NCBI RefSeq assembly: GCF_017356035.1
Contig: NZ_JAFIQX010000001.1
Location: 868,001 to 932,000, forward strand
Length of the DNA stretch: 64,000 nt
Direction: 5' to 3'
Origin: Longitalea luteola
Lineage (GTDB): Bacteria > Bacteroidota > Bacteroidia > Chitinophagales > Chitinophagaceae
The notes under the pieces are model-generated. The model was not told the DNA's origin, made no database searches, and saw only the letters and a list, made by a program, of their open reading frames with translations. A program made the translations under genes and the position numbers. Positions 26,848 through 62,735 of this stretch are shown one piece after another (the first letter of the stretch is position 1; every line of letters begins with the position of its first letter).

Positions 26848-28206
26848 ATGTTATTAAAGAATGCTACCATACTGGTGATCGATGATGATGTGGATGTACT
26901 AACTGCTGTGCGGCTGCTGTTGAAGACAGAAGCAAAAGAAGTGGTAACAGAAAAAAATCCGGAGAATCTTCGCTGGTTATTATCGAAACAATCCTTTGAT
27001 GTCATCTTGCTCGATATGAACTTCAACAGTTCCATCAATACCGGTAACGAAGGGTTGTTCTGGTTGAAGAAGGTTAAAGAATTTAAGTCAGAAGCAGCGG
27101 TGATCATGATCACGGCATACGGCGATATTGACCTGGCGGTGCGTTCGCTGAAAGAAGGGGCTGCCGATTTTGTCGTAAAGCCCTGGCATAACGAAAAGCT
27201 GATCATAACGATAAAGGATGCCTTAAAAAGAAAAGAAGGTAAAACCAATGCACCGCCTGTACGCAGCAGTGATTCGATCATCGGCACCGAGCTGCTGGGT
27301 GAATCTGATATAATGGCGGATATCTTTTATAAGATCGAAAAAATTGCTCCTACCGATGCCAACATTCTCATATTAGGTGAAAATGGAACGGGAAAAGACC
27401 TGATTGCAAAAGCCATTCACCAGCATTCGCTTCGCGCCAAAAAGGCGTATGTGAAGGTGGATGTAGGCGCACTTACAGAAACCCTGTTCGAAAGTGAGCT
27501 GTTCGGTCATAAGAAAGGCGCTTTTACCGATGCCCGGGAAGACCGTGTGGGCCGGTTTGAAGCGGCCAATGGCGGCACTCTTTTCCTGGATGAGATTGGC
27601 AATATCTCGCTGCATCAACAGGCCAAGTTATTAAGCGTATTGCAAAACCGGCAGGTAATAAGGCTGGGCACCAACGATCCGGTTCCGGTAGACATCCGGC
27701 TGATCTGCGCAACCAACGTACCGCTGGCTGAACTCGCCAATGAGAACCGGTTCCGTAAAGATCTTATTTACCGCATCAATACCGTAGAGATCATGGTGCC
27801 GCCCTTACGGAAACGGGGCAACGATATTATTTTGCTGGCAAAACATTTCAGTCAGTTGTACAGCAATAAGTACCTGAAGCCGGTGATGGAACTGGATGAT
27901 AAGGCGATCGATAAATTGCTCAGCTATCATTTTCCAGGGAACATCCGCGAGCTGCAGTATACTATTGAACGGGCGGTGATCATGTCAGACGGGCATGTGT
28001 TGCAGGCTACCGACCTTATCTTTTCACCCATTGAATCTTCGACTGCGCGCGAGAAAGAACCCGATGAACTGAACCTGAGCGCCGTTGAAAAGAACACCAT
28101 TTTACATGTCATTGAAAAGCACAATGGCAATATTACCCGGGCGGCGAAGGAGCTGGGACTTACCCGCACTGCTTTGTACAGGAGGTTAAGTAAATACGAT
28201 ATTTAA
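26848..28206 (+). CDS. NtrC-family sigma-54-dependent response regulator
   Basis: 452 residues from ATG 26848; the frame opens 25 codons earlier without a good start. The receiver domain 1-125 has acidic pocket DDDVD and phospho-acceptor Asp in VILLDMNFN. It carries an extra loop NSSINTGNEG after the Asp, which is typical of this Bacteroidota subgroup. The AAA+ domain has Walker A GENGTGKD, contact loop GAFTDA (canonical GAFTGA) and Walker B TLFLDEIGN. The C-terminal Fis-type HTH ends EKHNGNITRAAKELGLTRTA. It is followed 55 bp later by the histidine kinase. It faces the export cluster and is the natural candidate to bind the four 17-bp palindromes. Confidence 0.95.
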   Translation: MLLKNATILVIDDDVDVLTAVRLLLKTEAKEVVTEKNPENLRWLLSKQSFDVILLDMNFNSSINTGNEGLFWLKKVKEFKSEAAVIMITAYGDIDLAVRSLKEGAADFVVKPWHNEKLIITIKDALKRKEGKTNAPPVRSSDSIIGTELLGESDIMADIFYKIEKIAPTDANILILGENGTGKDLIAKAIHQHSLRAKKAYVKVDVGALTETLFESELFGHKKGAFTDAREDRVGRFEAANGGTLFLDEIGNISLHQQAKLLSVLQNRQVIRLGTNDPVPVDIRLICATNVPLAELANENRFRKDLIYRINTVEIMVPPLRKRGNDIILLAKHFSQLYSNKYLKPVMELDDKAIDKLLSYHFPGNIRELQYTIERAVIMSDGHVLQATDLIFSPIESSTAREKEPDELNLSAVEKNTILHVIEKHNGNITRAAKELGLTRTALYRRLSKYDI

Positions 28207-28306
28207 TGTGATGATGTGATAATGTGATAATCCCGAAGCCGGGACAAATTGTGATAATGAAATGCAGGGGAAGGCAACCACAAACCACAAACCACAAACT
28301 ACAAAC
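28207..28306. repeat. Octads after the regulator stop, then heptads inside the kinase start
   Basis: The stop codon of the regulator is followed directly by ATGTGATAATGTGATAA and a CCCGAAGCCGGG mini-palindrome (28232-28243). From 28276 to 28306 there are four in-phase AACCACA/AACTACA heptads, which fall inside the predicted N-terminus of the histidine kinase. Confidence 0.7.
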
Positions 28307-29650
28307 TTGTTTTATAAGCGTTTTGAATGGCGGATCATTTTCCAGGTGCTGTTCCTTTTTGTAATCCTGGCCATATCATCATTTCTGCTGGTAAAAGGAT
28401 ATTATGTGTATATGGTGGTAATGGCGCCCCTGCTCATTTACGCCATCGTTGAGTTATACCGCTTCCAGCGAAAGGCGCATGCCGAGCTGGATCAGTTTGT
28501 TGAATCGGTGCACTACCGTGATTTCTCACGCTATTTTGATGTAAAACATGCTCCCCTAGAACTTCAACCCTTGCGGAAAGGGTTCAATGAGATCAATTCC
28601 ACGTTTAAGGTGATCAGTAAGGAAAAGGAAACGCAGTTCCAGTACCTGCAAAAAATACTGGAACTGGTTGATACGGGCATTTTGTCGTACAGGGAGCACA
28701 ATGGCGAAGTGGTGTGGATGAATGAATCGCTGAAGCGGATGCTGCAACTGCCTTACCTGAAAACCATTCATTCGCTGGCCCGCCGGGACAATGACCTGTA
28801 CCGGCAGGTGACATTACTGAAACCCGGGGAAACCAAGATCGCTACCGCCCATTCAGAAAAAACATCGTTTAAATTATTGATGTCGGCTACTGCCTTTCAA
28901 ACGGATGGCAGCAAGTTCAAGCTGATCGCTTTTCAGAATGTAAGCGAGGCCCTGGATGAAACCGAATCCAAAGCATGGCAAAAGCTGTTGAGCGTAATGA
29001 CGCATGAGATCATGAACTCCATAGCGCCCATTTCATCGCTTGCTGAAACTTTGAAATACCGGCTGCAGCAGCTGGCAGAGCGGCCCGACATGGAGTCTGG
29101 TTCCATGGACGACCTGGAACTTGGCATCGACACTATTAAGAGAAGGAGTGAGGGGTTGCTGAAGTTTGCAGAAACCTATCGCAACCTGAACAAGATCACC
29201 ACGCTGAACCTGAAGAAGATCTATGTTCGTGATCTGTTCGAAAACCTGCATCACCTGATGCAGCCCACCCTGGAGCAAAAAAATATTGAGCTGGAAATTG
29301 TATTGAAAGATCCCGACCTGGAACTGGATGCTGATACCAACCTGCTGGAACAGGTGCTGATTAATTTGGTGGTGAATGCCATGGAGGCCGTGAAAGAGCG
29401 TCCGGCGCCCCGTATTGTATTATCTGCTTATTATGCCAACAACCATAGAACGGTGATCAAAGTAGCCGATAACGGTATTGGCATGCCCGAAGAGATCCTC
29501 GATAAAATATTCATTCCTTTCTTCAGTACCAAGAAGAGCGGCAGCGGCATTGGCCTCAGCCTGTGCAAGCAGATCATGATGCTGCATAAGGGCAATATCC
29601 AGGTGCAATCGGTAGAAGGGCAGGGGACTGCTTTTATGATGCAGTTTTAG
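28262..29650 (+). CDS. Sensor histidine kinase (two membrane helices, PAS-like domain)
   Basis: 462 residues. Two adjacent helices (about 25-70, FQVLFLFVILAISSFLLV and YVYMVVMAPLLIYAIV) leave almost no periplasmic loop, so the signal is probably sensed in the membrane or cytoplasm. A PAS-like domain is at about 125-235. The H-box is SVMTHEIMNSIAP, N-box LINLVVNAMEA, G1 VADNGIGMP, F-box IFIPFFSTK and G2 GSGIGLSLCK. It should phosphorylate the regulator just upstream. The first 15 residues (MQGKATTNHKPQTTN) are encoded by heptad repeat. The only ATG is 28262, but an in-frame TTG at 28307 would remove the repeat. Confidence 0.94.
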   Translation: MQGKATTNHKPQTTNLFYKRFEWRIIFQVLFLFVILAISSFLLVKGYYVYMVVMAPLLIYAIVELYRFQRKAHAELDQFVESVHYRDFSRYFDVKHAPLELQPLRKGFNEINSTFKVISKEKETQFQYLQKILELVDTGILSYREHNGEVVWMNESLKRMLQLPYLKTIHSLARRDNDLYRQVTLLKPGETKIATAHSEKTSFKLLMSATAFQTDGSKFKLIAFQNVSEALDETESKAWQKLLSVMTHEIMNSIAPISSLAETLKYRLQQLAERPDMESGSMDDLELGIDTIKRRSEGLLKFAETYRNLNKITTLNLKKIYVRDLFENLHHLMQPTLEQKNIELEIVLKDPDLELDADTNLLEQVLINLVVNAMEAVKERPAPRIVLSAYYANNHRTVIKVADNGIGMPEEILDKIFIPFFSTKKSGSGIGLSLCKQIMMLHKGNIQVQSVEGQGTAFMMQF

Positions 29651-29652
29651 TC

Positions 29653-29715
29653 AATGTGCTTATGTGCTAATTAGCTAATATGCTAATTGGCTAATATGCT
29701 AATTGGCTAACATGG
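29653..29715. repeat. Octad array after the kinase stop codon
   Basis: Starting two bases after the TAG, words GCTAATTA, GCTAATAT and GCTAATTG (twice over) and GCTAACAT follow in 8-base phase, in the sense direction of the kinase. Confidence 0.8.
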
Positions 29716-29757
29716 TGAAGAAACAAGCACTACCTGCAACTTACAACTACTATTTTT

Positions 29758-30267: not shown

Positions 30268-30386
30268 GATGCAAAATTAATACAAAACGGTTATTTCGTT
30301 GTATTACAATGCGGAATGAAGAAAGTTCAATGAGGAAACCAGATAATATAGCAGTAAGTAAAACGTGATCGAATGATCAGGGAAGC

Positions 30387-30659: not shown

Positions 30660-30726
30660 CAGATGAGTATTTCTATGATTGGTGTACACGAATATAAGAA
30701 TTTTATTTTTAATATTAAAGCAAAAA

Positions 30727-30751
30727 ACGGTCCTGGCGCAGCCGGGACCGT
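30727..30751 (-). terminator. Terminator of ychF
   Basis: An 11-bp stem ACGGTCCTGGC / GCCGGGACCGT (one G-T pair) with loop GCA is followed on the minus strand by a T-run (A-run 30722-30727 on plus). Confidence 0.85.
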
Positions 30752-31987: not shown

Positions 31988-32070
31988 TTTCGGCGGCGCA
32001 AAGATAGGTATTACCGGGTGATAAAATATGGCTGGATTCCTTTATCTTCAGCGCTTAATCTAATTCCCTT

Positions 32071-33474
32071 ATGGCATTAAGTCGCATCTGGAGTGCCTTT
32101 ATTATAGTTTCCATAATAGTAGCTGTTATTCAATTCGTCGCGGGTGGTCAAAAGCAGGTTTTCAGTTCCATGGTTATCGGAAAACGGGGCGATTCGGTTC
32201 GGGTGAAGGAAATGGCTGTAACTGCAGCCGATCCTGCCCTGGTGGCGGCATTGGATACGGCGGGCCGGGTAAAACAGGGCGACCTGGTTTACCGGCGGGA
32301 AGCAGATAAGGTAGTGGGGGTAACCGTGCAGGCTGCCAATGGAATTGTGGATACCTGCTGGGATGCGGTAGACCTTTGCCTTAAGCTGATCGGCATCCTG
32401 GCCCTGTTTATGGGCTTTATGAGTATTGCGGAAAAGGCAGGGGGCATTCACCTGTTGTCGCGGATCATTGGCCCTTTCTTCTCTAAACTGTTCCCCGAAG
32501 TGCCGAAGGGGCACCCGGCCATGGGCCATATGATCATGAACTTTTCCGCCAATCTGCTGGGACTCGACAATGCTGCCACGCCCTTTGGCTTAAAGGCCAT
32601 GCAAAGCCTTCAGGAGCTCAATCCTAAAAAAGAGGTGGCCTCCAACGCGCAGATCATGTTCCTGTGTTTGCATGCTGCGGGATTCAACCTGATCCCTGTA
32701 AGTGTTATTGCTATAAGAGCTGCGCAACATGCCAGTGATCCTACCGACGTATTCCTGCCCTGTATGATCGTGACCTTTGTTGGCACCATGACCGCCATGT
32801 TCATTGTATCGCTCCGCCAAAAGATCAATCTGCTGCAGCCTGTCATCATAATGTGGATCGCAGGCATATCGGCTGTAGTTGCCCTGCTGGTTTGGTACCT
32901 GACTACCCTGGATGCCAATGGTGTGCAATTCTTTTCCAGCGTTTTGAGCAATGGGTTGATCCTGCTGGTCTTCCTGTTGACCGTGCTGGGAGCTGTATAT
33001 AAAAAGATTGACGTATTTGACGCTTTTATAGACGGGGCCAAAAATGGTTTTGAAACAGCTATCCGCATCATTCCTTACCTGGTAGGTATCCTGGTAGCGG
33101 TAAGCATGCTGCGCACCAGCGGTACTTTCGATGTGATCATGGATGGCATCAGGAACTTCTTTGCTTTCCTGGGCGCTGATACCCGGTTTGTGGATGGACT
33201 GCCCACTGCGTTGATACGCCCGTTAAGCGGGGGAGCCGCCCGGGGTATGATGGTAAGCACCATGATGGCAAACGGGCCTGATTCATTCGCCAGCCGCCTT
33301 TCCGGTATTTTCCAGGGCGCTGCGGATACCACTTTCTATGTGGTTGCGGTTTACTTCGGTTCTGTTTCCATAAAAAATACCCGTTATGCCATTGGTACTA
33401 TGTTGCTGGCCGACCTGGTATGCGTCATTACAGCCATTATTTTGGCTTATCTTTTCTTTGGGGGAAGCGCTTGA
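32071..33474 (+). CDS. Fused spore maturation protein A/B (nucleoside recognition Gate domains)
   Basis: 467 residues, polytopic membrane protein. The first half is SpmA-like (Gate domain with GLDNAATPFGLKAMQSLQEL and FLCLHAAGFNLIPVSVIAIR). The second half is SpmB-like (FIDGAKNGFETAIRIIPYLV, ALIRPLSGGAARGMM). In sporulating Firmicutes these are two proteins, whereas Bacteroidota often carry the fusion. The organism has no evident sporulation genes here, so the role is probably small-molecule transport. The 3' end is followed immediately by a long repeat array. Confidence 0.92.
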   Translation: MALSRIWSAFIIVSIIVAVIQFVAGGQKQVFSSMVIGKRGDSVRVKEMAVTAADPALVAALDTAGRVKQGDLVYRREADKVVGVTVQAANGIVDTCWDAVDLCLKLIGILALFMGFMSIAEKAGGIHLLSRIIGPFFSKLFPEVPKGHPAMGHMIMNFSANLLGLDNAATPFGLKAMQSLQELNPKKEVASNAQIMFLCLHAAGFNLIPVSVIAIRAAQHASDPTDVFLPCMIVTFVGTMTAMFIVSLRQKINLLQPVIIMWIAGISAVVALLVWYLTTLDANGVQFFSSVLSNGLILLVFLLTVLGAVYKKIDVFDAFIDGAKNGFETAIRIIPYLVGILVAVSMLRTSGTFDVIMDGIRNFFAFLGADTRFVDGLPTALIRPLSGGAARGMMVSTMMANGPDSFASRLSGIFQGAADTTFYVVAVYFGSVSIKNTRYAIGTMLLADLVCVITAIILAYLFFGGSA

Positions 33475-33918
33475 GCAATGTGATAATGTGATAATTTGAT
33501 GATGTGATAATGGAATACAGCCTTAAGCCAATGTGCTGATCAGCTAATGTGCTGATTTGCGAACGAAATACAACCTTGAGCCAATGTGCTGATTAGTTAA
33601 TGTGCTGATTTGCTAATGAAATACATCCTTAGGCAATGTGATAATGTGATAATTTGATGATGTGATAATGGAATACAGCCTTAAGCCAATGTGCTGATTA
33701 GCTAATGTGCTGATTTGCTAATGAAATACATCCTTAAGCAATGTGCTGATTAGCTAATGTGCTGATTTGCTAATTTGCTAATTTGCTAATGAAATACAGC
33801 CTTAGGCAATGTGATAATGTGATAATTTGATGATGTGATAATGGAATACAACCTTAAGCCAATGTGCTGATCAGCTAATGTGCTGATTTGCTGATTTGCT
33901 AATGAAATACAGCCTTAG
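33475..33918. repeat. Three copies of a 158-173-bp repeat built from octads
   Basis: The same start, GCAATGTGATAATGTG, occurs at 33475, 33633 and 33806. Each copy continues with GATGATGTGATAATGGAATAC and then GCTGATYAGCTAATGTGCTG blocks ending GAAATACANCCTTAG. The array begins directly after the stop codon of spmAB. It contains palindromic words (GCTGATCAGC). There are no open frames of note and no unique spacers, so it is not CRISPR. Confidence 0.85.
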
Positions 33919-33933: not shown

Positions 33934-34031
33934 AAACTGTAAACTTTGAACTTTGAACTGTGAACTTTGAACTGTGAACTTTGAACTGTGAACTGTGAAC
34001 TTTGAACTGTGAACTTTGAACTTTGAACTGT
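33934..34031. repeat. Fourteen exact-phase GAACTTT/GAACTGT heptads
   Basis: AAACTGT and AAACTTT are followed by twelve GAACTTT or GAACTGT words without a phase break. The last word overlaps the first base of the stop codon (34031-34033) of the DeoR gene. Confidence 0.88.
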
Positions 34032-34780
34032 TAAAGTACCTGTATGCCTGCGTCTATGTATGGTTTTAACTTGGGATCATCGGGTGGTAACTCGGTGATC
34101 AAAACATCTATGTGCTGAATGTCGCAAATATGAATAGGCTGTAAGGTGTTGATCTTTTCAGAAATGGTGAGACATACGATTTTCTGCGCCGACTGTATCA
34201 TGGCTTTTTTCAACTGAACCACTTCCCAATCGTTATCGGTAGTACCGTGTTTGAGATCGATGGCATTGATGCCCAGCAAGCAGAGATCGGCATTGATCTG
34301 TTTTATTTTTGAAATCGCTTCCGCCCCAATAGTGATCTTGGAGCTTTTTGAAATGCGGTCGCCGATCATGATCACGTCAATGGTCGGGTGCTGCATGTAT
34401 TCCAGTACGGCCGGTATGCTGCCCGACATGAAAGTGGCCTTCAACTGACGGGGCAGCGCGCGCGCCAGCTCAATGATGGTGGTGCCTCCACTGGTAAGTA
34501 CAAACATGCCGTTCTGAATAAGCGCAGCAGCCTTATTGGCTATGATCTTTTTGTGATCCTGCGAATACACATTGTCGGTTGGATAATAAACTTCGTTGAA
34601 GGAATGGCTGAGTGCTCCTCCATGAACTTTGATGATCTTGCCTTCATCTGCAAGCTCCTGCAGATCACGGCGGATCGTGTCCTCTGAAACGCGGATCTCC
34701 TGGCTGAGTAAAGAAGAAAGTACCTTGTTATGCAGGTTTACCTGATGCAGAATATAGGCCTGACGCTCTTTTTTTAACAT
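34031..34780 (-). CDS. DeoR/GlpR-family transcriptional regulator (copy A)
   Basis: 249 residues. An N-terminal DeoR winged helix-turn-helix (ERQAYILHQVNLHNKVLSSL, recognition helix SEDTIRRDLQEL, wing KVHGGAL) is followed by a DeoR sensor domain (about 75-235, LTSGGTTIIELARALP and FLGINAID-like LGINAIDLKHGTT). Such domains bind phosphosugars. It is highly similar to copy B at 40870-41619, with an almost identical HTH. The two copies bracket a SusCD pair, so both probably bind the same operators. Upstream it shares CAAATATAAC and GCATAAA boxes with copy B. Confidence 0.93.
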   Translation of the reverse strand: MLKKERQAYILHQVNLHNKVLSSLLSQEIRVSEDTIRRDLQELADEGKIIKVHGGALSHSFNEVYYPTDNVYSQDHKKIIANKAAALIQNGMFVLTSGGTTIIELARALPRQLKATFMSGSIPAVLEYMQHPTIDVIMIGDRISKSSKITIGAEAISKIKQINADLCLLGINAIDLKHGTTDNDWEVVQLKKAMIQSAQKIVCLTISEKINTLQPIHICDIQHIDVLITELPPDDPKLKPYIDAGIQVL

Positions 34781-41812: not shown

Positions 41813-42262
41813 ATAATTAGCTAATGTGATAATTAGCTGATGTGATAATTGAATACAGTTCCGATATTGAAGGGGATTGTGGGTGCCGGGGCAAGCGATA
41901 AACGTTAATTAGCTAATGTGCTAATTAGCTGATGTGCTAATGAATTAGATGATGTGATAATTAGCAAATGTGATAATGGAATACAGTTCCGATAATCAAG
42001 GCGACCGTGGGTGCCGGGGCAAGAGATAAACGTTAATTAGCTAATGTGCTAATTTGCTGATGTGCTAATGAATTAGCTGATGTGATAATTAGCTGATGTG
42101 ATAATTGAATACAGTTCCGATAATCAAGGGGATTGTGGGTGCCGGGGCAAAAGATAAACGTTAATTAGCTAATGTGCTAATTAGCTGATGTGCTAATGAA
42201 TTAGATGATGTGATGATTAGCTAATGTGATAATGGAATACAGTTCCGATAATCTACGGAATT
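41813..42262. repeat. 128-bp exact-period tandem repeat, about 3.5 copies
   Basis: The landmark GAATACAGTTCCGAT begins at 41851, 41979, 42107 and 42235, exactly 128 bp apart each time. Units also share GTGGGTGCCGGGGCAAG and GATAAACGTTAATTAGCTAA. The rest of each unit is made of octads (GCTAATGT, GATAATTA). AATTAGCTAATT is a self-complementary word. No coding potential is seen. Confidence 0.9.
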
Positions 42263-42290
42263 GTCAATGAAAATCAAACCCGACTAAAGC

Positions 42291-42388
42291 GCGTTCCGCG
42301 TTCAGCGTTCAGCGTTCAGCGTTCCGCGTTAAGCGTTCAGCGTTCAGCGTTAAGCGTTCAGCGTTTTGCGTTCAGCGTTCCGCGTTAT
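42291..42388. repeat. Fourteen exact-phase GCGTTCA-type heptads
   Basis: Words GCGTTCC, GCGTTCA, GCGTTAA and GCGTTTT run without a phase break. The last word, GCGTTAT, contains the stop codon of the barrel protein ending at 42385. The sense-strand word is TGAACGC, as in the array after the FecR stop at 56821. Confidence 0.9.
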
Positions 42389-42843
42389 TTAATAACAAAC
42401 CTGATCGTGAAGGCAAAGGCGTCGGGTACAAAGTTGATATCGGGCAGGAAGTCCAGCTCGGGTTTCCAGTCTAACGAAAGATTAACAGGCGCATTGGTGA
42501 ATTTATAATCGAGTCCCACAATACCGGTAGGTCCAAGGTAAGTATCCCCATCCTGGAAGCCTACATATGCACCACCCCCATAAAACCAGCTAAGGCCCGG
42601 AGTGTTGAATTTATTATGGATCTCCAGCAATGCACCAATCCCAAACCGGTTGCCCCAGGCTACGATCCCTTCTATAGCGGTCTTATCGGTTGCAAAAAAT
42701 TTACCTGAAATAGCGCTGCTTAAAGTAGGCGAGGAGTTGCTGAGGCGTATACCGGCTGCAAACCGGTAGTCCTGGGCGGCTGCACGCTGGCAAATAAACA
42801 TACAACATAGTATAACGGGCAGGGTTATGGAGACTCTCTTCAT
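42385..42843 (-). CDS. Small outer-membrane beta-barrel-like protein
   Basis: 152 residues. A signal peptide (VSITLPVILCCMFICQRAAAQ) is followed by alternating beta strands with aromatic girdles (YRFAAGIRLSNSS; WFYGGGAYVGFQDG; VGLDYKFTNAPVNLSLDWKP) and a terminal AFAFTIRFVIK. It is probably an 8-stranded barrel of the OmpA/OmpW size class. Function is unknown. Its stop codon lies inside a heptad array. Confidence 0.75.
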   Translation of the reverse strand: MKRVSITLPVILCCMFICQRAAAQDYRFAAGIRLSNSSPTLSSAISGKFFATDKTAIEGIVAWGNRFGIGALLEIHNKFNTPGLSWFYGGGAYVGFQDGDTYLGPTGIVGLDYKFTNAPVNLSLDWKPELDFLPDINFVPDAFAFTIRFVIK

Positions 42844-48899: not shown

Positions 48900-49018
48900 G
48901 TACTAAAAACCAATTCGATAATTGGATAATGTGATGATATGATAATTAAATGTGATGCTAACAGACGTTTTGCAGTGGCCAAACTATGAACTTTGAACTA
49001 TGAACTTTGAACTTTAAG
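48900..49018. repeat. Octads and GAACTTT heptads between the two amidases
   Basis: GATAATGT-type octads run at about 48910-48950. Heptads AAACTAT, GAACTTT, GAACTAT, GAACTTT, GAACTTT run at 48981-49015, ending seven bases before the stop codon of copy 2. Confidence 0.75.
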
Positions 49019-49021
49019 AGC

Positions 49022-50047
49022 TTAATGAGTACCGGTGCTGTCGGCCGGGATCAATGGGGGCGGAGCTGGTTCTGATGTGGCAGATGAAGCCTGTTGAACC
49101 GGGGTAATGCCGCCCTCGAGGCTGGCTTTGTAACGTTTAATGGCATTTACAATGGCGGCCACTATTTCTTCCTGTCCTTTTTCGCTGTTAATGTATTCTT
49201 CTTCTTCTGTCTGGGTAATAAAACCGGTTTCCACCAGGATGCTGGGCATGCCGGTAGCCTGCAACACCCAGATGCCTTTTTCATTCCGTTGTTTTACACC
49301 CCGGCTGACCCTGCCGCCTTTAACAAATTCTTCTTCAACCAATGTGGCCAGCAGCAGGCTCTTACCGAAATATTTCTTTTCATAGAGCTGTGCCCTGATC
49401 ATGGCTTCGGGCGAATTCAGGTCAAGCATATTGGTGCTGTCCTCTACCATTTCCCCGGTTTCACCGGTTGATTGAATAGCCTCGCCTTTATAACCGGTAC
49501 GGTCGGCTGCCCAGATATAGGTTTCCGTGCCGTGCATCTGATTCTTGACCCAATAATTTTCATAAATGGGCACGCGCACGGTTTTTTTACGTCTTTTTGA
49601 CCCTTTTCCCACATAAACAGTGCGGTTTTTATAGCCTACCACCCGTTTGGCATACCACCCGCCGGCTTTTGCACCGGAAGCATTGCAGTGAATGGCAATG
49701 AACAGATCGCCCTTGGCCTGGTTGGCCAAATCAGCACGATACCGCAAGGCATCATGAATATTGTTCAGTCCACCAGGGAGCTCATCGGTAGTGCGGGTAA
49801 ATATCAGCTTACTTTCGGGTAATTCAGCGGCTAAGGCCTTACCCAGTTTGAGTGAAATGGACAAAGCAACGGCGGCTTCGGTAGAGAATTGTCCATGCGC
49901 GCCGGGGTCAATGCCCCCGTGGCCGGGATCGATAATGATAGTGCCGAGTACAGGTTTCTGTTGCGCCCATGCGCGGGTACCTGCAAAAAATAAAATTCCT
50001 GCAACAATAAAACTTAAAAAACCGCGATATAAATTTTTTTTATTCAT
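49022..50047 (-). CDS. N-acetylmuramoyl-L-alanine amidase (Amidase_3), copy 2
   Basis: 341 residues with signal peptide ending near ARAWAQQ. Motifs are IIIDPGHGGIDPGAHG, FIAIHCNAS and PSILVETGFITQ. Close paralogue of copy 1: the stretch GVKQRNEKGIWVLQAT is shared unchanged. It is divergent from lptD with an 80-bp gap. Position beside lptD and mce suggests coordinated peptidoglycan opening for envelope machines. Confidence 0.94.
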   Translation of the reverse strand: MNKKNLYRGFLSFIVAGILFFAGTRAWAQQKPVLGTIIIDPGHGGIDPGAHGQFSTEAAVALSISLKLGKALAAELPESKLIFTRTTDELPGGLNNIHDALRYRADLANQAKGDLFIAIHCNASGAKAGGWYAKRVVGYKNRTVYVGKGSKRRKKTVRVPIYENYWVKNQMHGTETYIWAADRTGYKGEAIQSTGETGEMVEDSTNMLDLNSPEAMIRAQLYEKKYFGKSLLLATLVEEEFVKGGRVSRGVKQRNEKGIWVLQATGMPSILVETGFITQTEEEEYINSEKGQEEIVAAIVNAIKRYKASLEGGITPVQQASSATSEPAPPPLIPADSTGTH

Positions 50048-52890: not shown

Positions 52891-52916
52891 CCCCCGGTGA
52901 GCAATTTCTGATTTCT

Positions 52917-52980
52917 GATTTCGGGATTTTGAGATCTCTTTACGTTCAGCTTAATAATTAAATCTCAAAATCCCGAAATC
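52917..52980. repeat. 19-bp perfect inverted repeat of AAATCTC octads between convergent genes
   Basis: GATTTCGGGATTTTGAGAT at 52917-52935 is exactly reverse-complementary to 52962-52980, with a 26-base loop. More AAATCTCG/AAATCTCA octads follow to about 53015. It lies between convergent lptD and plsC and could terminate both. Confidence 0.8.
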
Positions 52981-53017
52981 TCAAAATCTCGAAATCTCAA
53001 AATCAGACATCCCGAAA

Positions 53018-53761
53018 TCACTTTGCGTTCCTGGTGTAGTAATCATACATGACCTGAAAAACTCTCTCTTTTAACGTCTGCGTGGTGTCACCCGGTTGAA
53101 CCGGAACAGGCGGCAGAAAATGCATTTCCATTTTATGCGGTAACAGGAAGAAGGGTTTGCTGGCCGGTAATACTTTCCGGGTATTGAATATCAAACTGGG
53201 AATAATGGCTTTGCCACTGTCGATGGCGAGGCGGAACGCTCCATCGTGAAAAGATTTCAGCGGCTGACCGGTAAGGTTACGGGTGCCCTCGGGGTACAGG
53301 CACATATGTAAACCCATTTCCAGCACCTTGCGCATTTTCAAATAACTTTCCTTACGGCTGGCTTCGCTTTTGCGATCAACGAGTACCGAACCTGCTTTAT
53401 AGATCATTCCGAAGATGGGGATCTTAGCCATTTCAACCTTGGCGATTGTTTTATTGCCGCCGGGAATGGCCGGGTAGGAGATGGGTACATCCATAAAAGA
53501 ATTATGGTTGCTAACGACGATATACGTTTCGCCGGGTGCAAAATGTTTTCTTCCCCGTACTTTCAGCGGACAGCCAATGAGAGGAAGGTAAATGCCCATC
53601 CAGATGCGGGAAATAGCAGCAAAGCGCCTGGTCTTTTTAGGCTCGGCCAATGGATAGCTGAAGATCAGGAAGGGGACCAGCACTATGAGCAAAGTGATAA
53701 CAAATACCAATGCCGCCCAGGCTGCACAAATTCTGCCTACTATTTCTTTGATGATTTTCAT
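53018..53761 (-). CDS. 1-acyl-sn-glycerol-3-phosphate acyltransferase (PlsC family)
   Basis: 247 residues from ATG 53761; an upstream TTG adds eight residues. There is an N-terminal membrane segment (about 14-36, ALVFVITLLIVLVPFLIF). Acyltransferase block I is VVSNHNSFMD (NHx4D), block III LYPEGTRN, and block IV AIIPSLI. It makes phosphatidic acid in the inner membrane. It is convergent with lptD. Confidence 0.93.
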   Translation of the reverse strand: MKIIKEIVGRICAAWAALVFVITLLIVLVPFLIFSYPLAEPKKTRRFAAISRIWMGIYLPLIGCPLKVRGRKHFAPGETYIVVSNHNSFMDVPISYPAIPGGNKTIAKVEMAKIPIFGMIYKAGSVLVDRKSEASRKESYLKMRKVLEMGLHMCLYPEGTRNLTGQPLKSFHDGAFRLAIDSGKAIIPSLIFNTRKVLPASKPFFLLPHKMEMHFLPPVPVQPGDTTQTLKERVFQVMYDYYTRNAK

Positions 53762-54560: not shown

Positions 54561-54864
54561 GATACATTACATATTTGCGATAAAAATAAGGAAAGGGAAT
54601 TTATTTGATATAGATAATTTACCTGCTATGTAACTGATACAGTTACTACGTGCTAATATTTTTTTTGCAAAGAGTATTCAGGATGCGTTAAATTAGAACG
54701 CCGAACGCAAACGCCGAACGCGAAACGCCGAACGCGAAACGCTCAACGCAAAATCCGCCAAAGGCGAACCCGCGGAGGCAACATGAAAGCGCGGAATAAC
54801 CGGACTCAGGCGTTAAGCGTTACGCGTTGAGCGTTAAGCGTACATTAACTTATCCTTACTGCTG
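54561..54864. repeat. Inverted heptad arrays in the ung/sigma divergent gap
   Basis: ACGCCGA/ACGCGAA/ACGCTCA heptads run at about 54700-54760. The reverse-complement family (GCGTTAA, GCGTTAC, GCGTTGA) follows at about 54812-54838, just before the sigma-factor gene. The two blocks can pair across a core that contains TCCGCCAAAGGCG. No gene is supported. Confidence 0.7.
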
Positions 54865-55443: not shown

Positions 55444-55717
55444 TGCTCCCCAGCCCCGAATTACCAGTTTGCAGTTTGCACCGGTTGTCACTGCCCACTG
55501 CCTTCAGCATTTAGCGTCTGCCTGCCCGCAGGCAGGTTCTGCTTTCAGCGTTCAGCGTTCAGCGTTTAGCGTTTTACGTTTTGCCTTCAGCCTTGCGCCT
55601 TCAGCCTTGCGCCCTTTTTGATACTTTTATGCTCTATGTTGGTATTTTTTTAACAATATGCCATTTTACCCAGTAGGAAATCGAGGTAACGGGAACTTAT
55701 ACGTATAACCGAGCTAT
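55444..55717. repeat. Mixed heptads and palindrome between sigma and FecR genes
   Basis: Heptad families change along the gap: AGTTTGC near 55466, then the palindrome CTGCCTGCCCGCAGGCAG near 55517. GCGTTCA/GCGTTTA (about 55548-55577) and GCCTTCA/GCCTTGC (about 55582-55612) follow. A promoter for fecR presumably lies downstream of these. Confidence 0.7.
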
Positions 55718-56821
55718 ATGAAGGACTTCCGGCTTTATGATATAGCAGATTTTGTAATAGATGAAGACTTTATCCGCTGGGTACATGAACAGCGTGAAGA
55801 AGACAATCTGTTCTGGAATACCTGGCTGCAACAACATCCCGACAAACACCTGGTGATCGCTACCGCCAGGCGGATCGTTAGTTCCATACAGTTCCAGCAA
55901 ACCACCATAGCTGCGCCGGAAGTGGAGCAGGAGATCAGCAGGTTGTTGCATACGATCAGTACCCAGCAAACACCAGCAGCGCCCCGAACAGCAAGGGTCA
56001 TTGCTTTTAAATGGTGGTATGCAGCGGCAGTATTATTGTTGAGTTTAACCGGCGGCTGGTATTTTTATTTTCGCAATACATCCAGCCGGCCTTTCGCCTA
56101 TGCTTCCATGGTAGCCTCCAAACAACTGATAGAACATACGAATACATCCGATCAGCCGCTGGTGTTAGCCCTGCCCGACGGCAGCCGGCTTACCCTGGCC
56201 TCCAAAAGCCGCGTAAGTTATGCGCATACATTTGGTTCCGATGATACTACCCGCTACGGCGCGAGCCGCGATGTGTATTTGCTGGGCGAGGCTTTTTTCG
56301 AAGTGACCAAAAATCCAAACCGGCCATTCCGGGTGTTTGCCAACGAAATTGTGACCAAAGTGCTGGGCACCAGTTTTACCGTGCGCTCATTTGAAAAAGA
56401 CACTACCATACAGGTAACGGTTCGAACCGGGAAAGTGAGCGTATATGCACAGGCAGCCACGCCGGCTTCCGCCAAAATGAGTGAGATCATTTTGACGCCG
56501 AACCAGCAGCTGTTGTATGAAAGAGCAGCGCAAAAATTTCAGAAGATATTGCTCAACAACCCTGCCCCGATTGTACCGGCCAGTATAACGCGAACCATGA
56601 TCTATGACGATGCACCGCTCGATAAAGTATTCAGTGATCTCAGTAAAGCCTACGGCATCAGCATTGTTTTCGACAGCGAAGTATTGAAAAAATGCACGGT
56701 GACCGCCGATCTTACCAATGAGTCGTTCTACCAGCAGCTGAACCTGATCTGCAGCGCCATAGATGCGCAGTATGAACTGATCGACGGACAGGTAGTGATT
56801 GAAGCGAATGGATGTAGATGA
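55718..56821 (+). CDS. FecR-family anti-sigma factor
   Basis: 367 residues. The cytoplasmic N-terminal sigma-binding region is 1-100, with one membrane helix at about 107-126 (WWYAAAVLLLSLTGGWYFYF). The FecR domain is at about 150-250 (LPDGSRLTLASKSRVSYAHT; VYLLGEAFFEVTKNPNRPF), and the C-terminal DUF4974-like domain is at 295-360 (YDDAPLDKVFSDLSKAYGIS). It is expected to hold the ECF sigma factor until contacted by the STN domain of SusC copy 2. Confidence 0.94.
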   Translation: MKDFRLYDIADFVIDEDFIRWVHEQREEDNLFWNTWLQQHPDKHLVIATARRIVSSIQFQQTTIAAPEVEQEISRLLHTISTQQTPAAPRTARVIAFKWWYAAAVLLLSLTGGWYFYFRNTSSRPFAYASMVASKQLIEHTNTSDQPLVLALPDGSRLTLASKSRVSYAHTFGSDDTTRYGASRDVYLLGEAFFEVTKNPNRPFRVFANEIVTKVLGTSFTVRSFEKDTTIQVTVRTGKVSVYAQAATPASAKMSEIILTPNQQLLYERAAQKFQKILLNNPAPIVPASITRTMIYDDAPLDKVFSDLSKAYGISIVFDSEVLKKCTVTADLTNESFYQQLNLICSAIDAQYELIDGQVVIEANGCR

Positions 56822-57199
56822 CGCTGAACGCTGAACGCTGAACGCCAAACGCGGAACGCTAAATGCGCAACGGCCAAACGCAGGAACGCTATAGGAACTG
56901 TATTTGAGATAAACGTTATGCATTAGGCGTTGAGCATGATTGGGGGAACTGTATTCGCGTTACGCGTTATGCGTTAAGCATATAAAGCGAGGATGAAATT
57001 AGTAAGAGAACCTATATAATGATTATGTAATAAACCCAGTAATATGATCAAGTTACCTCCATAAAGAACAGGCAAAAAAAGAGCCCCGACATTGTTCGCA
57101 CCAATATCAGGGCTTTAGATGATTTGTCCTGCAGGAATTATGCAGCGGGACAAATATTGATTAAAACTGATTGCTTTAACCAACTAATAGTACAAACTT
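56820..57199. repeat. TGAACGC heptads after fecR and leader of susC copy 2
   Basis: ACGCTGA (three times), ACGCCAA, ACGCGGA and ACGCTAA begin in the fecR stop codon. A second block GCGTTAC, GCGTTAT, GCGTTAA lies at about 56958-56978 in inverted orientation. The hairpin at 57082-57114 and the SusC leader follow. No gene is supported. Confidence 0.7.
57082..57114 (-). terminator. Hairpin with minus-strand T-run upstream of susC copy 2
   Basis: AGCCCCGACATTG / CAATATCAGGGCT pair with two internal mismatches around a 7-base loop. An A-run at 57074-57080 becomes a T-run on the minus strand. As no minus-strand gene ends here, it would terminate an antisense RNA, or alternatively act as a leader structure. 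Confidence 0.45.
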
Positions 57200-60100: not shown

Positions 60101-60694
60101 CTGAAGTTCAAAGACATCAGCGGTCCGGACGGCAAACCGGATGGAGTGATCACTGCAGATGACAGAACATTCATTGGCAGTTATCTGCCTGATTTTACTT
60201 ACTCCCTGAACTTTTCAGGTACCTATAAGAACTTCGATGCCTCGTTGTTTTTCCAGGGCGTACAGGGAAACAAGATCTTTAATGCAACCCGCATTATTAC
60301 CGAGGGAATGGCGCGTTTATTTGGTGCAGGTACCGAAGTATTGAATGCCTGGACACCGACCAACACCAATACCAGTATACCCAGGGCCATCAGTGGCGAT
60401 CCTAACCAGAATGTGCGTCCGTCTACACGCTGGATTGAAGATGGTTCTTATCTGCGGTTAAAGAATATAGTTATAGGGTATACGATTCCCGGCAACCTGC
60501 TGCAATCTGTGACCAAAGGGGCCGTAAGCAATATAAGAGTATACATTTCATCACAGAACCTGTTAACCTTTACCAAATACAAGGGATGGGATCCTGAGAT
60601 CGGGACCAAGAACACCACCCTTACCAACGGGATAGACTATGGACAGTATCCTGCTGCACGTTCTTTCCAGTTTGGGATACAGGCAGGTTTTTAG
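57200..60694 (+). CDS. SusC/RagA TonB-linked transporter with STN signalling domain (copy 2)
   Basis: 1164 residues. Signal peptide to about residue 38 (ending ARPVHGQE), then STN domain at about 45-110 (DNKEMKSVLSEISRLADIKF; LGDVLNILLSPLNILYFVSG). A carboxypeptidase-regulatory-like domain follows at about 147-215 (ITGKVTNENGEPLNGVSVLV), then the TonB box region VIIVGYGTQRRSTLTGAIAS. The plug has QALQGRVAGLSV and IRGVSSISFASDPLYVIDGF, and the barrel ends RSFQFGIQAGF. The STN domain should contact FecR and relay substrate binding. SusD follows after 46 bp. Confidence 0.96.
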   Translation: MKKVLVNQLIYRFMRIGLLPLLLITGFAGMMYARPVHGQEVLNQRINLVADNKEMKSVLSEISRLADIKFVYSSQRIPAKQKISCIARNQRLGDVLNILLSPLNILYFVSGNQIVLMRKGETYNVAMFFTDDPRQLLMEEETPPRPITGKVTNENGEPLNGVSVLVRGTNRGTSTNEKGVFVITADVGETLIFSMVGYREYAVKVGNEDNVTIQLQAEQTNMNEVIIVGYGTQRRSTLTGAIASVNNKTITELPVASVEQALQGRVAGLSVTNNGTPGTSPLVRIRGVSSISFASDPLYVIDGFPTGNLVHFDSRDIETVEVLKDASAAAIYGSRATNGVIIITTKKGKKDNKLKVQLDSYVGTQKAWNTLDLLNTEQYLRYERALNGAAGIDLPPRLEPANFNQPIYNGTTQTYAQTNTDWQDAYFKSGIITQHNLAVSGGNDLSRFYSSAGYFKQDGIAQGVYYERGNFRINSEHKISKVFSFGENLYTAYSKQRYDATPDNRTRLMNVIRQLPYMPVYDPTTQGGFRDAENSVDGADPVNPVMEAILLGNSYRKNLKILGTAYAEVNFTPWLKFKSTFGVDHVALNQHNYDPIYTSKGRSASLANIQDVRTNFTTLLFTEQLTFDKTFGDHHLALTAVYEQQTTKAAGSQQGGNQTSNGIETLVGAINASSFSTQSENELISYVGRVNYEFAGKYLLSAAIRRDGLSVWAPGNKFANFPSASIGWRVNQESFMKNAKNISELKIRAGYGETGLNGIGIFAALPNSQLPNDYPWQAVVLQNGALYPFNNTIPTGGNASFYNALANPDLEWEKTKQLNIGLDLGLLGNRISVSADYYRRKTDNLMLSVPTPTSFGFGGGGVLANVGSMENNGLDLQLTYSQKQGDFKWDIAGNISFISNKVIHLNTPNATIDQGGDQDFGGGAPITRTMAGQPIQSYLGYIVDGIFQTQAEVDASPFQTTGTRPGDLKFKDISGPDGKPDGVITADDRTFIGSYLPDFTYSLNFSGTYKNFDASLFFQGVQGNKIFNATRIITEGMARLFGAGTEVLNAWTPTNTNTSIPRAISGDPNQNVRPSTRWIEDGSYLRLKNIVIGYTIPGNLLQSVTKGAVSNIRVYISSQNLLTFTKYKGWDPEIGTKNTTLTNGIDYGQYPAARSFQFGIQAGF

Positions 60695-60740
60695 GTGAAT
60701 CCCATTTGACTTATTTGACTCATTTTAACAATTGCTTATT

Positions 60741-62306
60741 ATGAAACGAACTACTTTATATAAATTCAGCGTTGCCATTGTACTGGTTTTACTGGGCGTC
60801 ATAGTAGCGTGTGAAAAAAGGCTGGACAAAACCAATCCCAGCTACCCCGACCTGGGCGGCTATTTCAAGAACAGCGAAGAGTTGTTGCGGGGAACCAATT
60901 CCGTATATTCTATGTATCATGGGGGATGGCTGGTAGGCCGCGAATGGTTCTTTGTAGAAGATCTGCGCAGTGATGAATTTGCTGCCGGTGGCGGTCAGCT
61001 GGAAGTACCGCGGGCGCAGATCCTGAATGGAAATACCACACCCGATAATGCGGTGATGAGTGATGTATGGCGCGGCTGGTATACCGTTATTCACCGGGCG
61101 AATACCGTTATAGCCAACGGTCCGAATGTAACTGATAATACATCGTTGCGCGACCGGTGTGTGGCCGAAGCCAAATTCTTCCGGGGCGTAGCCTATTTTG
61201 AATTGTTGTATAAATGGGGGCCTGTACCCATGTACCTGCAGCCGGTAACTGCTGCCAACCAGTTTCAACCAAGAGTACCCGAAGCAGAAGTATATAACCA
61301 GGTAATAAAAGATCTGAAAGAAGCAGCTGCTGTGTTGCCGGTCTCTTATGGTACCGAAGACCGGGGCAGGGCCACGAGGGGCGCTGCCAATGCCATGTTG
61401 GGACGGGTATACATGCAAAAAGGAGATTATGACAGCGCAAAAACCGTGTTGCTGGCAGTGGTGAATAGCAATCAATACTCGATGAATATTCCTTATGGCG
61501 ACAATTACCTGGAAGAAACGGAGTTCAACCCCGAATCAATTTTTGAAGCCGTATACTTTCAGAATATTCCCAATCAGTTTAACTGGGGCGGCACCGGCGA
61601 TGATCCCAGCCAGTCGCAGGGAACTACGCGCAACCAGGAGTATTCGCCGATCGCCTGGCGTAATTTAATTCCCAGTAACAAATACCTCGAAGAATTTGAA
61701 AAGACCAGCCAGGGCGCGGCCAAAACCGATCCACGTTTCAAGATGTCGGTGTATGAAAGCGGCGACTTCTTTAATAATAATGAATCACAGATCACCGACG
61801 ATAACCAGAACGGAAATTCATCTGTTGTCCATGGCGTCACCCGCAAGATCAGCTGGCGGAAATTTACCATCATTTACAAACATCCTATAGCCGACCGGGC
61901 AGGTGGTGGTAATAATCAACGCATCATCCGGCTGGCGGAAGTGTTGTTGATGCTGGCCGAATGTGAAAATGAGCTGGGCAATTTCAGTGCAGCTGTAGGT
62001 TATCTGAACCAGGTACGCGACCGGCCGGGCGTGCAAATGCCGCATTACCCAACAGCCCAGTTCCCAACCGGTAATAAGCAACAGATCACAAGAGCTATTA
62101 TGCACGAAAAAATGGTAGAGCTGGGTGGTGAAGAGATTCGAAACCGCGATATCATTCGTTGGAGAAAGAAGGGATATTTTACAACTGATCCTGTTTCTTA
62201 TTTCAGGCCCAATCGCGATGAATTACTCCCCATTCCCCAGGCTGAAATCGATAATAACCCCGAACTCGGCTCAAGGGGTATAGCCAGGCAAAACAGAGGG
62301 TACTAA
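60741..62306 (+). CDS. RagB/SusD-family lipoprotein (copy 2)
   Basis: 521 residues from ATG 60741; an upstream TTG adds three residues. The lipobox is LLGVIVAC, with lipid-anchored Cys near residue 24. Typical SusD segments include RDRCVAEAKFFRGVAYFELL, RGAANAMLGRVYMQKGDY, IIRLAEVLLMLAECENELG and the C-terminal LLPIPQAEIDNNPEL. It is the partner of SusC copy 2. The stop codon is followed at once by the 82-bp hairpin array. Confidence 0.95.
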   Translation: MKRTTLYKFSVAIVLVLLGVIVACEKRLDKTNPSYPDLGGYFKNSEELLRGTNSVYSMYHGGWLVGREWFFVEDLRSDEFAAGGGQLEVPRAQILNGNTTPDNAVMSDVWRGWYTVIHRANTVIANGPNVTDNTSLRDRCVAEAKFFRGVAYFELLYKWGPVPMYLQPVTAANQFQPRVPEAEVYNQVIKDLKEAAAVLPVSYGTEDRGRATRGAANAMLGRVYMQKGDYDSAKTVLLAVVNSNQYSMNIPYGDNYLEETEFNPESIFEAVYFQNIPNQFNWGGTGDDPSQSQGTTRNQEYSPIAWRNLIPSNKYLEEFEKTSQGAAKTDPRFKMSVYESGDFFNNNESQITDDNQNGNSSVVHGVTRKISWRKFTIIYKHPIADRAGGGNNQRIIRLAEVLLMLAECENELGNFSAAVGYLNQVRDRPGVQMPHYPTAQFPTGNKQQITRAIMHEKMVELGGEEIRNRDIIRWRKKGYFTTDPVSYFRPNRDELLPIPQAEIDNNPELGSRGIARQNRGY

Positions 62307-62310
62307 AACA

Positions 62311-62735
62311 TTTCTGATTTTGAGATTTAGGGATTTCGAGATTTTATCAGTTTTTGGCTGGCAAACAAATCCCGAGATCTCTAAATCCTGAAATTCTGAT
62401 TTCGAGATTTAGGGATTTCGAGATTTTATCAGTTTTTGGCTGGCAAACAAATCCCGAGATCTCTAAATCCTGAAATTCTGATTTTTGAGATCCAAAGATT
62501 CTGATTTGATCTGGTTTTTCGTGTTTAGGCAAATCTCGAAATCTCAAAATCCCGAAATTCTGATTTTTGAGATCCAGGGATTCTGATTTGATCTGGTTTT
62601 TCGCGTTTAGGCAAATCCCCAGATCTCAAAATCCCGAAATTCTGATTTTTGAGATCCAGGGATTCTGATTTGATCTGGTTTTTCGTGTTTAGGCAAATCC
62701 CGAGATCTCTAAATCCCGAAATCGAAAAATTTCTT
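62311..62735. repeat. Five about 82-bp tandem hairpin units between susD and the VCBS gene
   Basis: Units begin GAGATTTAGGGATTTCGAG at 62322 and 62404, and GAGATCCARRGATTCTGATTT at 62487, 62570 and 62651 (82, 83, 83 and 81 bp apart). In the first two the left arm pairs with AAATCCCGAGATCTCTAAAT across a loop containing CAGTTTTTGGCTGG. In the last three the loop is CTGGTTTTTCGYGTTTAGGC. Arms are AAATCTC/AAATCCC octads, as at 52917-53015. The array ends four bases before the ATG of the VCBS gene. Confidence 0.85.

What the first reader, a model, noticed from the sequence alone, without database searches (positions are those of the whole stretch)
28203..62320. Stop-codon-anchored, oriented heptad/octad arrays at gene 3' ends
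Arrays of 7- or 8-bp words start in, or within a few bases of, stop codons. Octads after six genes (ATPase 15977, permease 17027, ATPase 24555, regulator 28206, kinase 29650, spmAB 33474) all read GATAATGT or GCTAATNN on the sense strand of the gene that ends there, three on each DNA strand. TGAACGC heptads do the same after the barrel gene (42385) and fecR (56821). Genes with a clear hairpin terminator (ychF, susD copy 1, oxidoreductase, SBBP, tRNA) have no such array at their stop. The DNRLRE gene has both, with the hairpin nearer. A 3'-end function (termination, mRNA 3' stability, or a target for a dedicated factor) is inferred. Arrays far from stops (5471, 41813) do not follow the rule.
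Basis: partly seen in the sequence, partly recalled or inferred. Interest (0 to 1): 0.72.

Follow-up and report, generated by a model that had tools for sequence, protein, structure and literature searches.

The report
Outward-facing short repeats at gene ends
In this soil bacterium and its relatives, strings of 7- or 8-letter DNA words fill gaps between genes, often start right at stop codons and nearly always point away from the gene with their G-rich strand; the words change from species to species while place and direction stay, which looks like a fast-evolving intergenic repeat system rather than a fixed gene-end signal.

Summary
Tandem arrays in this genome occur almost only at periods 7 and 8 (0.8 Mb) and are nearly all intergenic (1.6 Mb). 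In tandem-gene gaps 57 of 189 arrays start within 10 nt of the stop; 16 lie that near the next start. All 43 stop-adjacent GATAATGT-type octads are sense.

The rule is wider than "3' end": words point outward from either gene edge (117 of 124 stop-edge, 28 of 31 start-edge arrays), and the outward strand is usually G-rich whatever the word. At one orthologous stop congeners carry different words or none, while the protein ends at or near the same residue. Arrays often form inverted pairs, some round a conserved 58-bp core.

Arrays avoid ends with hairpin terminators, but orthologues lacking the array show no more terminators (small numbers), so terminator replacement is not supported. Best reading: inverted-arm intergenic repeat units with fast word turnover, bounded by the coding end. 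PMC4692102 reported the same placement for one heptad type in Xanthomonas and Nostoc: a new variant of a known kind.

The parts
5485..5529 (+). GATAATGT octads, 51 nt from and outward of the 5' edge of gene 3926-5434(-)
5580..5633 (-). AATGGTG heptads, after the hairpin that follows stop 5691(-)
5535..5584 (-). 58-bp CTCGCGA core between the two arrays (seed of the profile)
   Evidence: hit at 741584 of the joined stretch; window = minus 736000
15803..15868 (+). AATGGTG heptads on the 5' side of gene 14439-15782(-)
15873..15925 (+). CTCGCGA-type core, diverged copy (seed of the profile)
15943..15979 (-). GATAATGT octads at stop of ABC ATPase 15977-16639(-)
16852..16893 (+). AATGGTG heptads upstream of a CTCGCGA core
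16891..16949 (+). CTCGCGA core (seed of the profile)
   Evidence: hit at 752891
16972..17023 (-). octads at stop of permease 17027-19453(-)
24514..24551 (-). degenerate GCTAATNN octads at stop of ABC ATPase 24555-25232(-); limits by eye
   Evidence: below my detection threshold
28204..28231 (+). GATAATGT octads that take in the TAA stop of the response regulator
28276..28306 (-). GTTTGTG heptads (AACCACA on +), ending at the likely start of the kinase
29653..29714 (+). GCTAATNN octads at stop of kinase 28262-29650
33477..33900 (+). compound octad array at stop of 32071-33474
33935..34031 (-). GTTCAAA heptads at stop of DeoR-type gene 34031-34780(-)
41815..42264 (+). 3.5 copies of a 128-bp octad unit with GGAATACAGTTCCGATAATC; left (+) member of a pair with the next array
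42291..42386 (-). AACGCNN heptads at stop of 42385-42843(-)
48982..49015 (-). GTTCAAA heptads at stop of 49022-50047(-), absent in G007
52904..53019 (.). GATTTC arrays, + arm then - arm, in the gap of a convergent pair
54696..54841 (.). AACGC unit with + arm 54696-54753 and - arm 54810-54841 in a divergent gap, absent in G007
56821..56976 (.). AACGC unit at the FecR stop, + arm 56821-56891 and - arm from 56956; G007 and G002 have no array there
62312..62722 (.). five 82-bp units with GATTTC and inverted AAATC words after SusD 60732-62306

Best explanation
Many of the arrays are arms of small intergenic repeat units built as inverted pairs: tandem words reading 5'->3' into the gap from its left edge, a centre of some 20-120 nt, and tandem words on the opposite strand from its right edge. 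The G-rich strand of an arm usually points away from the neighbouring gene. Arms appear and vanish between sister species; words drift and are swapped while period (7 or 8), position and strand stay. The arms spread until they meet sequence under selection. The coding end is the sharpest such edge, so an arm runs up to the last codon and often takes the stop codon into its first word. Start-side edges (promoter, leader) are less often free, so fewer arrays lie there. Shown: period, place, strand, G-skew, turnover, paired order, one conserved core. Inferred: that units disperse by copying and grow by slippage, that selection sets the edge, and that no RNA 3'-end function is needed. Not explained: why the G-rich strand points outward and why only 7 and 8.
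For: Outward rule at both edges without using families: 117 of 124 stop-edge, 28 of 31 start-edge arrays that have a near word elsewhere (162 edge arrays in all). Ordered pairs in one gap: same family +- 33, -+ 4, ++ 11, -- 7; different family +- 35, -+ 10, ++ 8, -- 6. Beyond 53 of 99 stop-edge arrays there are two or more words of the same family on the opposite strand within 400 nt; beyond 23 there are two or more on the same strand. In G000, arrays more than 60 nt from a stop, yet nearer to it than to the other edge, tend to the opposite skew (G>C outward 18, C>G 35), as second arms would. A 58-bp core has 18 hits in four species, in all gap layouts, 7 sense and 6 antisense in tandem gaps, with words on its upstream side in 15 and its downstream side in 14 of 18; among the 10 hits that were not seeds, 7 and 7. 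Orthologous stops: of 832 species pairs 50 have arrays in both (32 with different words), 190 in one, 592 in none (margins multiplied by hand give about 25 in both). G000 against G007, 119 gaps: arrays in both 15, G000 only 12, G007 only 4, neither 88. C-termini end at the same residue in 54 of 81 array-discordant pairs, within 2 residues in 72. G-rich outward: stop edges 99 against 21 in G000, 52 against 7 in congeners; array-free gaps at stops -0.03.
Against: Most centres are not shared: 36 of 139 spacers have a relative elsewhere in the sample, so one mobile family does not cover all. I saw no clean junction or target-site duplication in the G000/G007 alignments, by eye. Arms of one pair are not more complementary to each other than to arms of other loci, so they are not fresh inverted copies. 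The turn of skew beyond 60 nt is not seen in congeners (10 against 12). The core has no consensus RNA fold. 8 of the 18 core hits are the seeds, chosen mostly from array flanks, so arms there are by construction; the low array threshold used lets in some chance arrays. A Y1 transposase occurs at 1-3 per congener and in other genera; its link to the repeats was not examined. PMC4692102 found its repeats at unusually stable gaps (section 14), unlike the turnover here.
Confidence: 0.52

Rival explanations
1. 3'-end function: the sense, G-rich, C-poor array acts on transcripts leaving the gene, as a pause or terminator or as an end that exonucleases clear slowly.
For: Stop edges carry more arrays than start edges: convergent 57 of 298, tandem 71 of 643, against tandem start 24 of 643 and divergent start 8 of 388. 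Arrays avoid ends that have hairpin terminators (15 of 122 against 216 of 697). Species put arrays, often of different words, at the same stops more than chance. In Xanthomonas, transcripts were reported to start or stop more often at G4-forming heptads than at control repeats (PMC4692102, section 15).
Against: Same strand rule at gene starts. No within-orthologue trade between array and terminator (MH OR 1.4 in 38 groups). An array lies between the regulator and kinase genes, which look like one operon (28206/28307). 16 of 31 array-bearing gaps differ between G000 and G007.
Confidence: 0.2
2. Stop-codon supply: the array must hold stop codons in all frames where it touches a gene, so only the stop-rich orientation survives at 3' ends.
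For: TAATGTGA, TGAACGC, TGAATGG and TGAAGGC carry stops on the outward strand and a period of 7 or 8 puts them in every frame; MacGregor 2015 argued this for TAACTGA (PMC4679880, section 9).
Against: GTTCAAA, GTTTGTG, GTTACAG and CGGTTAC, by inspection, have their stops mainly on the other strand, yet are outward in 24 of 24 stop-edge cases. Does not touch the start edges.
Confidence: 0.08
3. Border insulators: a transcript running into a gene from outside reads the C-rich, G-poor strand of the array, and Rho loads there and stops it.
For: The skew is largely word-independent, so inward-running RNA would be C>G at both edges; that Rho prefers C-rich, G-poor RNA is recalled. Convergent stop edges, where such transcripts are expected, have most arrays (57 of 298).
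Against: Tandem stop edges, which no neighbour transcribes into, have three times the arrays of tandem start edges, which are (71 against 24 of 643).
Confidence: 0.1
4. Plain slippage microsatellites in free DNA: 7-8 bp is the unit the polymerase slips on, and position is only lack of selection.
For: Period restriction and intergenic location; a hypothesis of Mrazek 2007 as told in PMC4679880 and PMC4692102.
Against: Gives no strand rule: 43 of 43 stop-adjacent octads sense and words shared between loci in one outward orientation are not expected from local slippage.
Confidence: 0.1

Closest known systems
GGGAATC / GGGGA(C/T)T heptad repeats of Xanthomonas and Nostoc (PLoS One 2015, PMC4692102; sections 13-16 and passages read; first author Rehm is recalled)
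   Same: Period 7, mostly intergenic, downstream of ORFs mainly within 0-50 bp on the coding strand including all that overlap stops, upstream mainly on the non-coding strand, few in divergent gaps, single or inverted pairs, G-rich strand outward, no function found.
   Different: [quoted passage not shown] here some 70 consensus words, 8-mers too, most without GGG, word replacement at the same stop, gain and loss between sister species, and an avoidance of terminators measured.
TAACTGA heptamer repeats of Beggiatoaceae, cyanobacteria and a few Bacteroidetes (MacGregor 2015, PMC4679880; abstract, sections 3, 9, 10, 24 read)
   Same: Short heptad arrays, mostly intergenic, stops in all frames, sporadic among Bacteroidetes.
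   Different: One word, in the main species mostly just upstream of start codons in forward orientation, read as a possible translational site.
REPINs (PLoS Genet 2011, PMC3116915; passages read)
   Same: Paired inverted intergenic short repeats, dispersed, single arms as remnants.
   Different: REPIN arms are palindromic REPs thought to be moved by a RAYT; here arms are tandem word arrays and no transposase has been linked.
BrickBuilt MITE with a 23-bp minisatellite in Porphyromonas (PMC4596501; abstract and outline read)
   Same: Tandem repeats inside an intergenic element with inverted ends in Bacteroidota.
   Different: One element family, 19 copies, 23-bp unit; here the period is 7 or 8, words are many, and the arms themselves are the repeats.

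Membership tests
Outward-oriented intergenic heptad repeats (PMC4692102 type) | Period 7, intergenic | tested here: met
   182 of 188 period-7 arrays intergenic; also 127 of 128 at period 8
Outward-oriented intergenic heptad repeats (PMC4692102 type) | Coding strand downstream, non-coding strand upstream of ORFs | tested here: met
   117 of 124 and 28 of 31
Outward-oriented intergenic heptad repeats (PMC4692102 type) | One G4-forming word type (GGG runs) | tested here: not met
   70 words printed, most without GGG by inspection
Outward-oriented intergenic heptad repeats (PMC4692102 type) | Repeats kept in the same gene context between related species | tested here: inconclusive
   15 gaps shared, 16 in one only between G000 and G007; 32 of 50 array-array orthologue pairs have different words
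REPIN | Two inverted arms with a short centre | tested here: met
   Same-family order +- 33 against -+ 4; spacing 17-118 nt in 30 pairs
REPIN | Arms are palindromic REPs | tested here: not met
   Arms are direct word arrays
REPIN | RAYT / Y1 transposase linked to the repeats | not tested
   PF01797 present once here (C39:257267) and 1-3 times in each of 9 congeners, also in other genera; flanks not inspected
MITE | Dispersed copies of one sequence with inverted ends | tested here: inconclusive
   18 core hits, but 103 of 139 spacers have no relative in the sample
MITE | Target-site duplication | tested here: inconclusive
   None seen by eye in the G000/G007 alignments; junctions too diverged to fix
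Intrinsic terminator | Hairpin followed by a T-run at the array-bearing end | tested here: not met
   Within 150 nt of the stop 17 of 122, after the array 15 of 122, reversed control 6
Known Rfam RNA element | Match above gathering score in the window | tested here: not met
   Only the tRNA

The most novel reading that the evidence does not exclude
A general rule in unrelated bacteria: 7- and 8-bp word arrays are laid down with the G-rich strand leading away from genes, by a dedicated or polymerase-borne process that extends DNA ends outward with short G-rich words, in the manner of telomere addition, at both sides of intergenic breaks, which are then joined; the words are the variable product of that process and the stop codon is simply where the tolerated break lay.
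Probability: 0.1. Interest if true: 0.9.

Novelty: new variant of a known kind. Interest (0 to 1): 0.62.

Why it matters
Heptad repeats have been noted in print, mostly one word at a time. Here one genus shows many words, two periods, one strand rule and quick word replacement at fixed sites. That makes an old question, what makes and keeps 7-8 bp repeats, open to comparative test: the strand rule and the G-skew must be explained by any model, and sister species offer natural presence/absence pairs. It also warns against reading such arrays as conserved 3'-end signals.

Tried and rejected
Rejected or weakened. Hairpin co-evolution of the two arms: within-gap complementarity is not above between-gap (30 pairs). 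Stop-codon supply as the cause of strand: four families speak against it. Terminator replacement: no within-orthologue trade. One mobile family: blastn of array-masked gaps gave 1938 hits among 208 of 1051 gaps, not analysed further, and 36 of 139 spacers recur. RNA fold of the core: none. Rfam: only the tRNA. GGAATACAGTTCCGATAATC: 15 matches in the whole genome; a GAAATACA-like tail follows 22 of 74 GATAATGT arrays and none of four other families counted.

Results against my reading. AAGTCTG-labelled arrays are 4 outward and 6 inward at stops and AGTTAACC 4 and 3; AATGGTG has 1 and AAGGCTG 1 inward. I put the first down to CTGATTT arrays caught by my word list and the second to near-palindromic words, without a further test. 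69 of 354 arrays had no family and were left out there. In G005, 5 of 10 array ends have a terminator, unlike G000. The mid-gap control is 111 of 183, not even. Non-edge arrays are less clear: 16-60 nt from a stop 27 against 14 G>C outward, over 60 nt 18 against 35; from a start 26 against 5 and 36 against 20 (G000). Family sense was set from the stop-edge listing, so only within-family agreement and the start edges are independent; avoids this. Gene calls are from my own dicodon caller with no start-site model: stops are firm, starts are not. Cluster-level G>C is 7 of 8 unequal clusters (p 0.07), since single linkage lumps words. Edge arrays in other genera are too few to test (5 stop, 2 start), and one of the 'other Chitinophagaceae' loci (L176) is low-complexity at all periods. 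Stop-codon type by word family was tabulated and showed no clear dependence.

Papers: PMC4679880 abstract and sections 3, 9, 10, 24; PMC4692102 passages and sections 13-16; PMC3116915 and PMC4060949 passages; PMC4596501 abstract and outline; the rest in listings only. Searches for prior art. In these I saw no report of many-word, two-period arrays with word replacement; most subscription papers are not in the library.
Full report
WHAT WAS CHECKED. The window is C11:868001-932000 of a 7.3-Mb genome. I read 1.6 Mb of the same genome for the main statistics, later 1.74 Mb, and syntenic stretches of seven congeners.

THE ARRAYS ARE REAL AND NEARLY CONFINED TO 7 AND 8. In 800 kb, tandem segments appear at period 7 (66) and 8 (55) and their multiples, 4 at period 11, 0 at periods 2-6 and 9, and none in a Markov sequence. 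In 1.6 Mb, 182 of 188 period-7 and 127 of 128 period-8 arrays are intergenic. One search printed 70 consensus words from 800 kb. Seven sampled congeners have 42-133 period-7 and 0-125 period-8 arrays per Mb (some samples are only 40-60 kb); Pedobacter loci have 12 and 2, other Chitinophagaceae-type loci 60 and 13. Single words are far more uneven: a GATAATGT pattern has 514 matches here and 1-408 in nine congeners.

STOP ANCHORING. In tandem-gene gaps, 28 of 112 heptad and 29 of 77 octad arrays start within 10 nt of the stop or overlap it; uniform placement inside the gap gives 7.8 and 5.1, which understates the expectation for overlaps. 9 and 7 lie equally near the next start. Only 7 of 127 intergenic octad arrays are in divergent gaps, which make up 27% of intergenic bases. 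By edge: convergent stop 57 of 298, tandem stop 71 of 643, tandem start 24 of 643, divergent start 8 of 388.

STRAND. All 43 GATAATGT-type octads within 15 nt of a stop are sense; all 5 within 15 nt of a start are antisense. With no families defined, each edge array was compared with its nearest word elsewhere: 117 of 124 stop-edge and 28 of 31 start-edge arrays share the outward orientation; mid-gap arrays on the chromosome strand give 111 of 183. So words read outward from genes at both edges. The outward strand is mostly G-rich whatever the word: 99 against 21 arrays at stops, 25 against 3 at starts, 52 against 7 at congener stops, 7 against 2 at congener starts; array-free gaps have skew -0.03 (stop) and 0.10 (start). 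Beyond 60 nt from a stop the sign turns in G000 (18 against 35), as expected of a second, inverted arm, but not in congeners (10 against 12); beyond 60 nt from a start it stays outward (36 against 20; congeners 19 against 3).

INVERTED PAIRS AND A CORE. Within a gap, same-family arrays come in order +- 33 times and -+ 4; different families 35 and 10. Beyond 53 of 99 stop-edge arrays lie two or more opposite-strand words of the same family, beyond 23 two or more same-strand words. The 30 same-family pairs are 17-118 nt apart in gaps of 114 to over 600 bp, yet their word order is not mirrored. Around AATGGTG heptads lies a 58-bp core (GGCTCGCGAA...AATAAC...CTTGCGCCGCC...ATTGCC) with 18 hits in four species, 8 of them the seeds, in all gap layouts and both directions, flanked by words that differ from copy to copy: AATGGTG, GTGAGTG, AATCGTC, GCAAACG or CGCTGAA on one side, GATAATGT, GGCAATT, TGAAGGC, CAATAGA or CGTGAAA on the other (arrays here taken at a low threshold). 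It has no consensus RNA fold. Most other centres are not repeated in the sample (36 of 139 are).

EVOLUTION. At the response-regulator stop (28206) the protein ends in the same residues, SKYDI, in all 8 genomes compared, and the next bases are GATAATGT words in two (G000, G007), AGTTGACG in G006, AGTTGATC in G004, GAATATC-type heptads in G002, and no stop-edge array was detected in G003, G005 and G009. At the FecR stop (56821) G007 and G002 have no array, the window genome has an AACGC unit placed before the bases that begin at the stop in G007, G003 and G009 have GTGAGTG and AGTAGTG words and G005 an AGAAGGC array. Over 832 orthologue pairs without G000-G007, both ends have an array in 50 (32 different words), one in 190, none in 592; the margins multiplied by hand would give about 25 in both. 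Between G000 and G007, of 119 gaps 15 have arrays in both, 12 in G000 only, 4 in G007 only. C-termini of array-discordant pairs end at the same residue in 54 of 81 against 213 of 265 array-free pairs (p 0.015) and within 2 residues in 72 of 81 against 250 of 265, so arms abut and may slightly erode the coding end. The stop codon differs in 57 of 108 pairs with an array and 102 of 267 without (p 0.011).

TERMINATORS. Of ends with a stop-edge array 15 of 122 have a predicted intrinsic terminator in the 150 nt after the array (reversed control 6); of array-free ends 216 of 697 (control 70); OR 0.31, p 1e-5, in convergent and tandem gaps alike. Within the 38 orthologue groups discordant for the array there is no such difference (array members with a terminator 8.2, others 6.9 in weighted groups; MH OR 1.4). 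Arrays thus seem to sit at ends that lack terminators in the genus; they do not visibly replace them. The numbers are small, and G005 alone goes the other way (5 of 10).

MECHANISM. I take many of the arrays for arms of inverted intergenic repeat units that grow, shrink and change word quickly and fill unconstrained gap sequence up to the coding end. The strand rule then follows from the inverted build, not from the gene's direction, and holds at starts as well. Dispersal by copying, growth by slippage and lack of function are inferred. The cause of the G-rich-outward rule and of the 7/8 limit is open.

KNOWN OR NEW. PMC4692102 (PLoS One 2015; sections 13-16) describes for GGGAATC-type heptads in Xanthomonas and Nostoc the same placement and strand rule, stop overlap, few divergent gaps and inverted pairs, without a function. 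MacGregor 2015 (PMC4679880) describes TAACTGA arrays in Beggiatoaceae, cyanobacteria and some Bacteroidetes. The present case adds many words, octads, word replacement at fixed stops, a largely word-independent G-skew, a core with exchangeable arms and the terminator relation. I file it as a new variant of a known kind.

Noticed in passing
28232-28252; G006 orthologues of stops 24555 and 29650: A small hairpin-like insert, CCCG...CGGGACA..., sits inside octad arrays (GATAAT|insert|GATAATG) at several loci and in a second species: a nested dispersed element.
   Followed up: no
1.6 Mb sample; a near-copy at about 55518-55536: A 20-bp perfect palindrome CCTGCCTGCCGGCAGGCAGG: 10 intergenic and 0 coding exact matches in 1.6 Mb, several beside AACGC and GATTTC arrays.
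   Followed up: no
41815-42264: 128-bp unit in 3.5 copies with GGAATACAGTTCCGATAATC; 15 matches of that 20-mer (up to 3 mismatches) in the whole genome.
   Followed up: partly
62312-62722: Five 82-bp GATTTC units after SusD; the pieces of the aligned G007 gap look like a hairpin terminator instead, an impression from the alignment only.
   Followed up: no
28262-28307: The kinase ORF opens at 28262 but congeners keep the sequence only from about 28307, so the AACCACA heptads probably end right at its start codon.
   Followed up: partly
11389-11882: 159-bp tandem repeats inside the coding sequence 11064-13961.
   Followed up: no
31992-32013 (reverse strand): TAATACCTATCTTTGCGCCGCC, nearly kept in G005 and G009, fits the Bacteroidota -7 box TAnnTTTG (motif recalled) and resembles the 3' half of the CTCGCGA core.
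   Followed up: no
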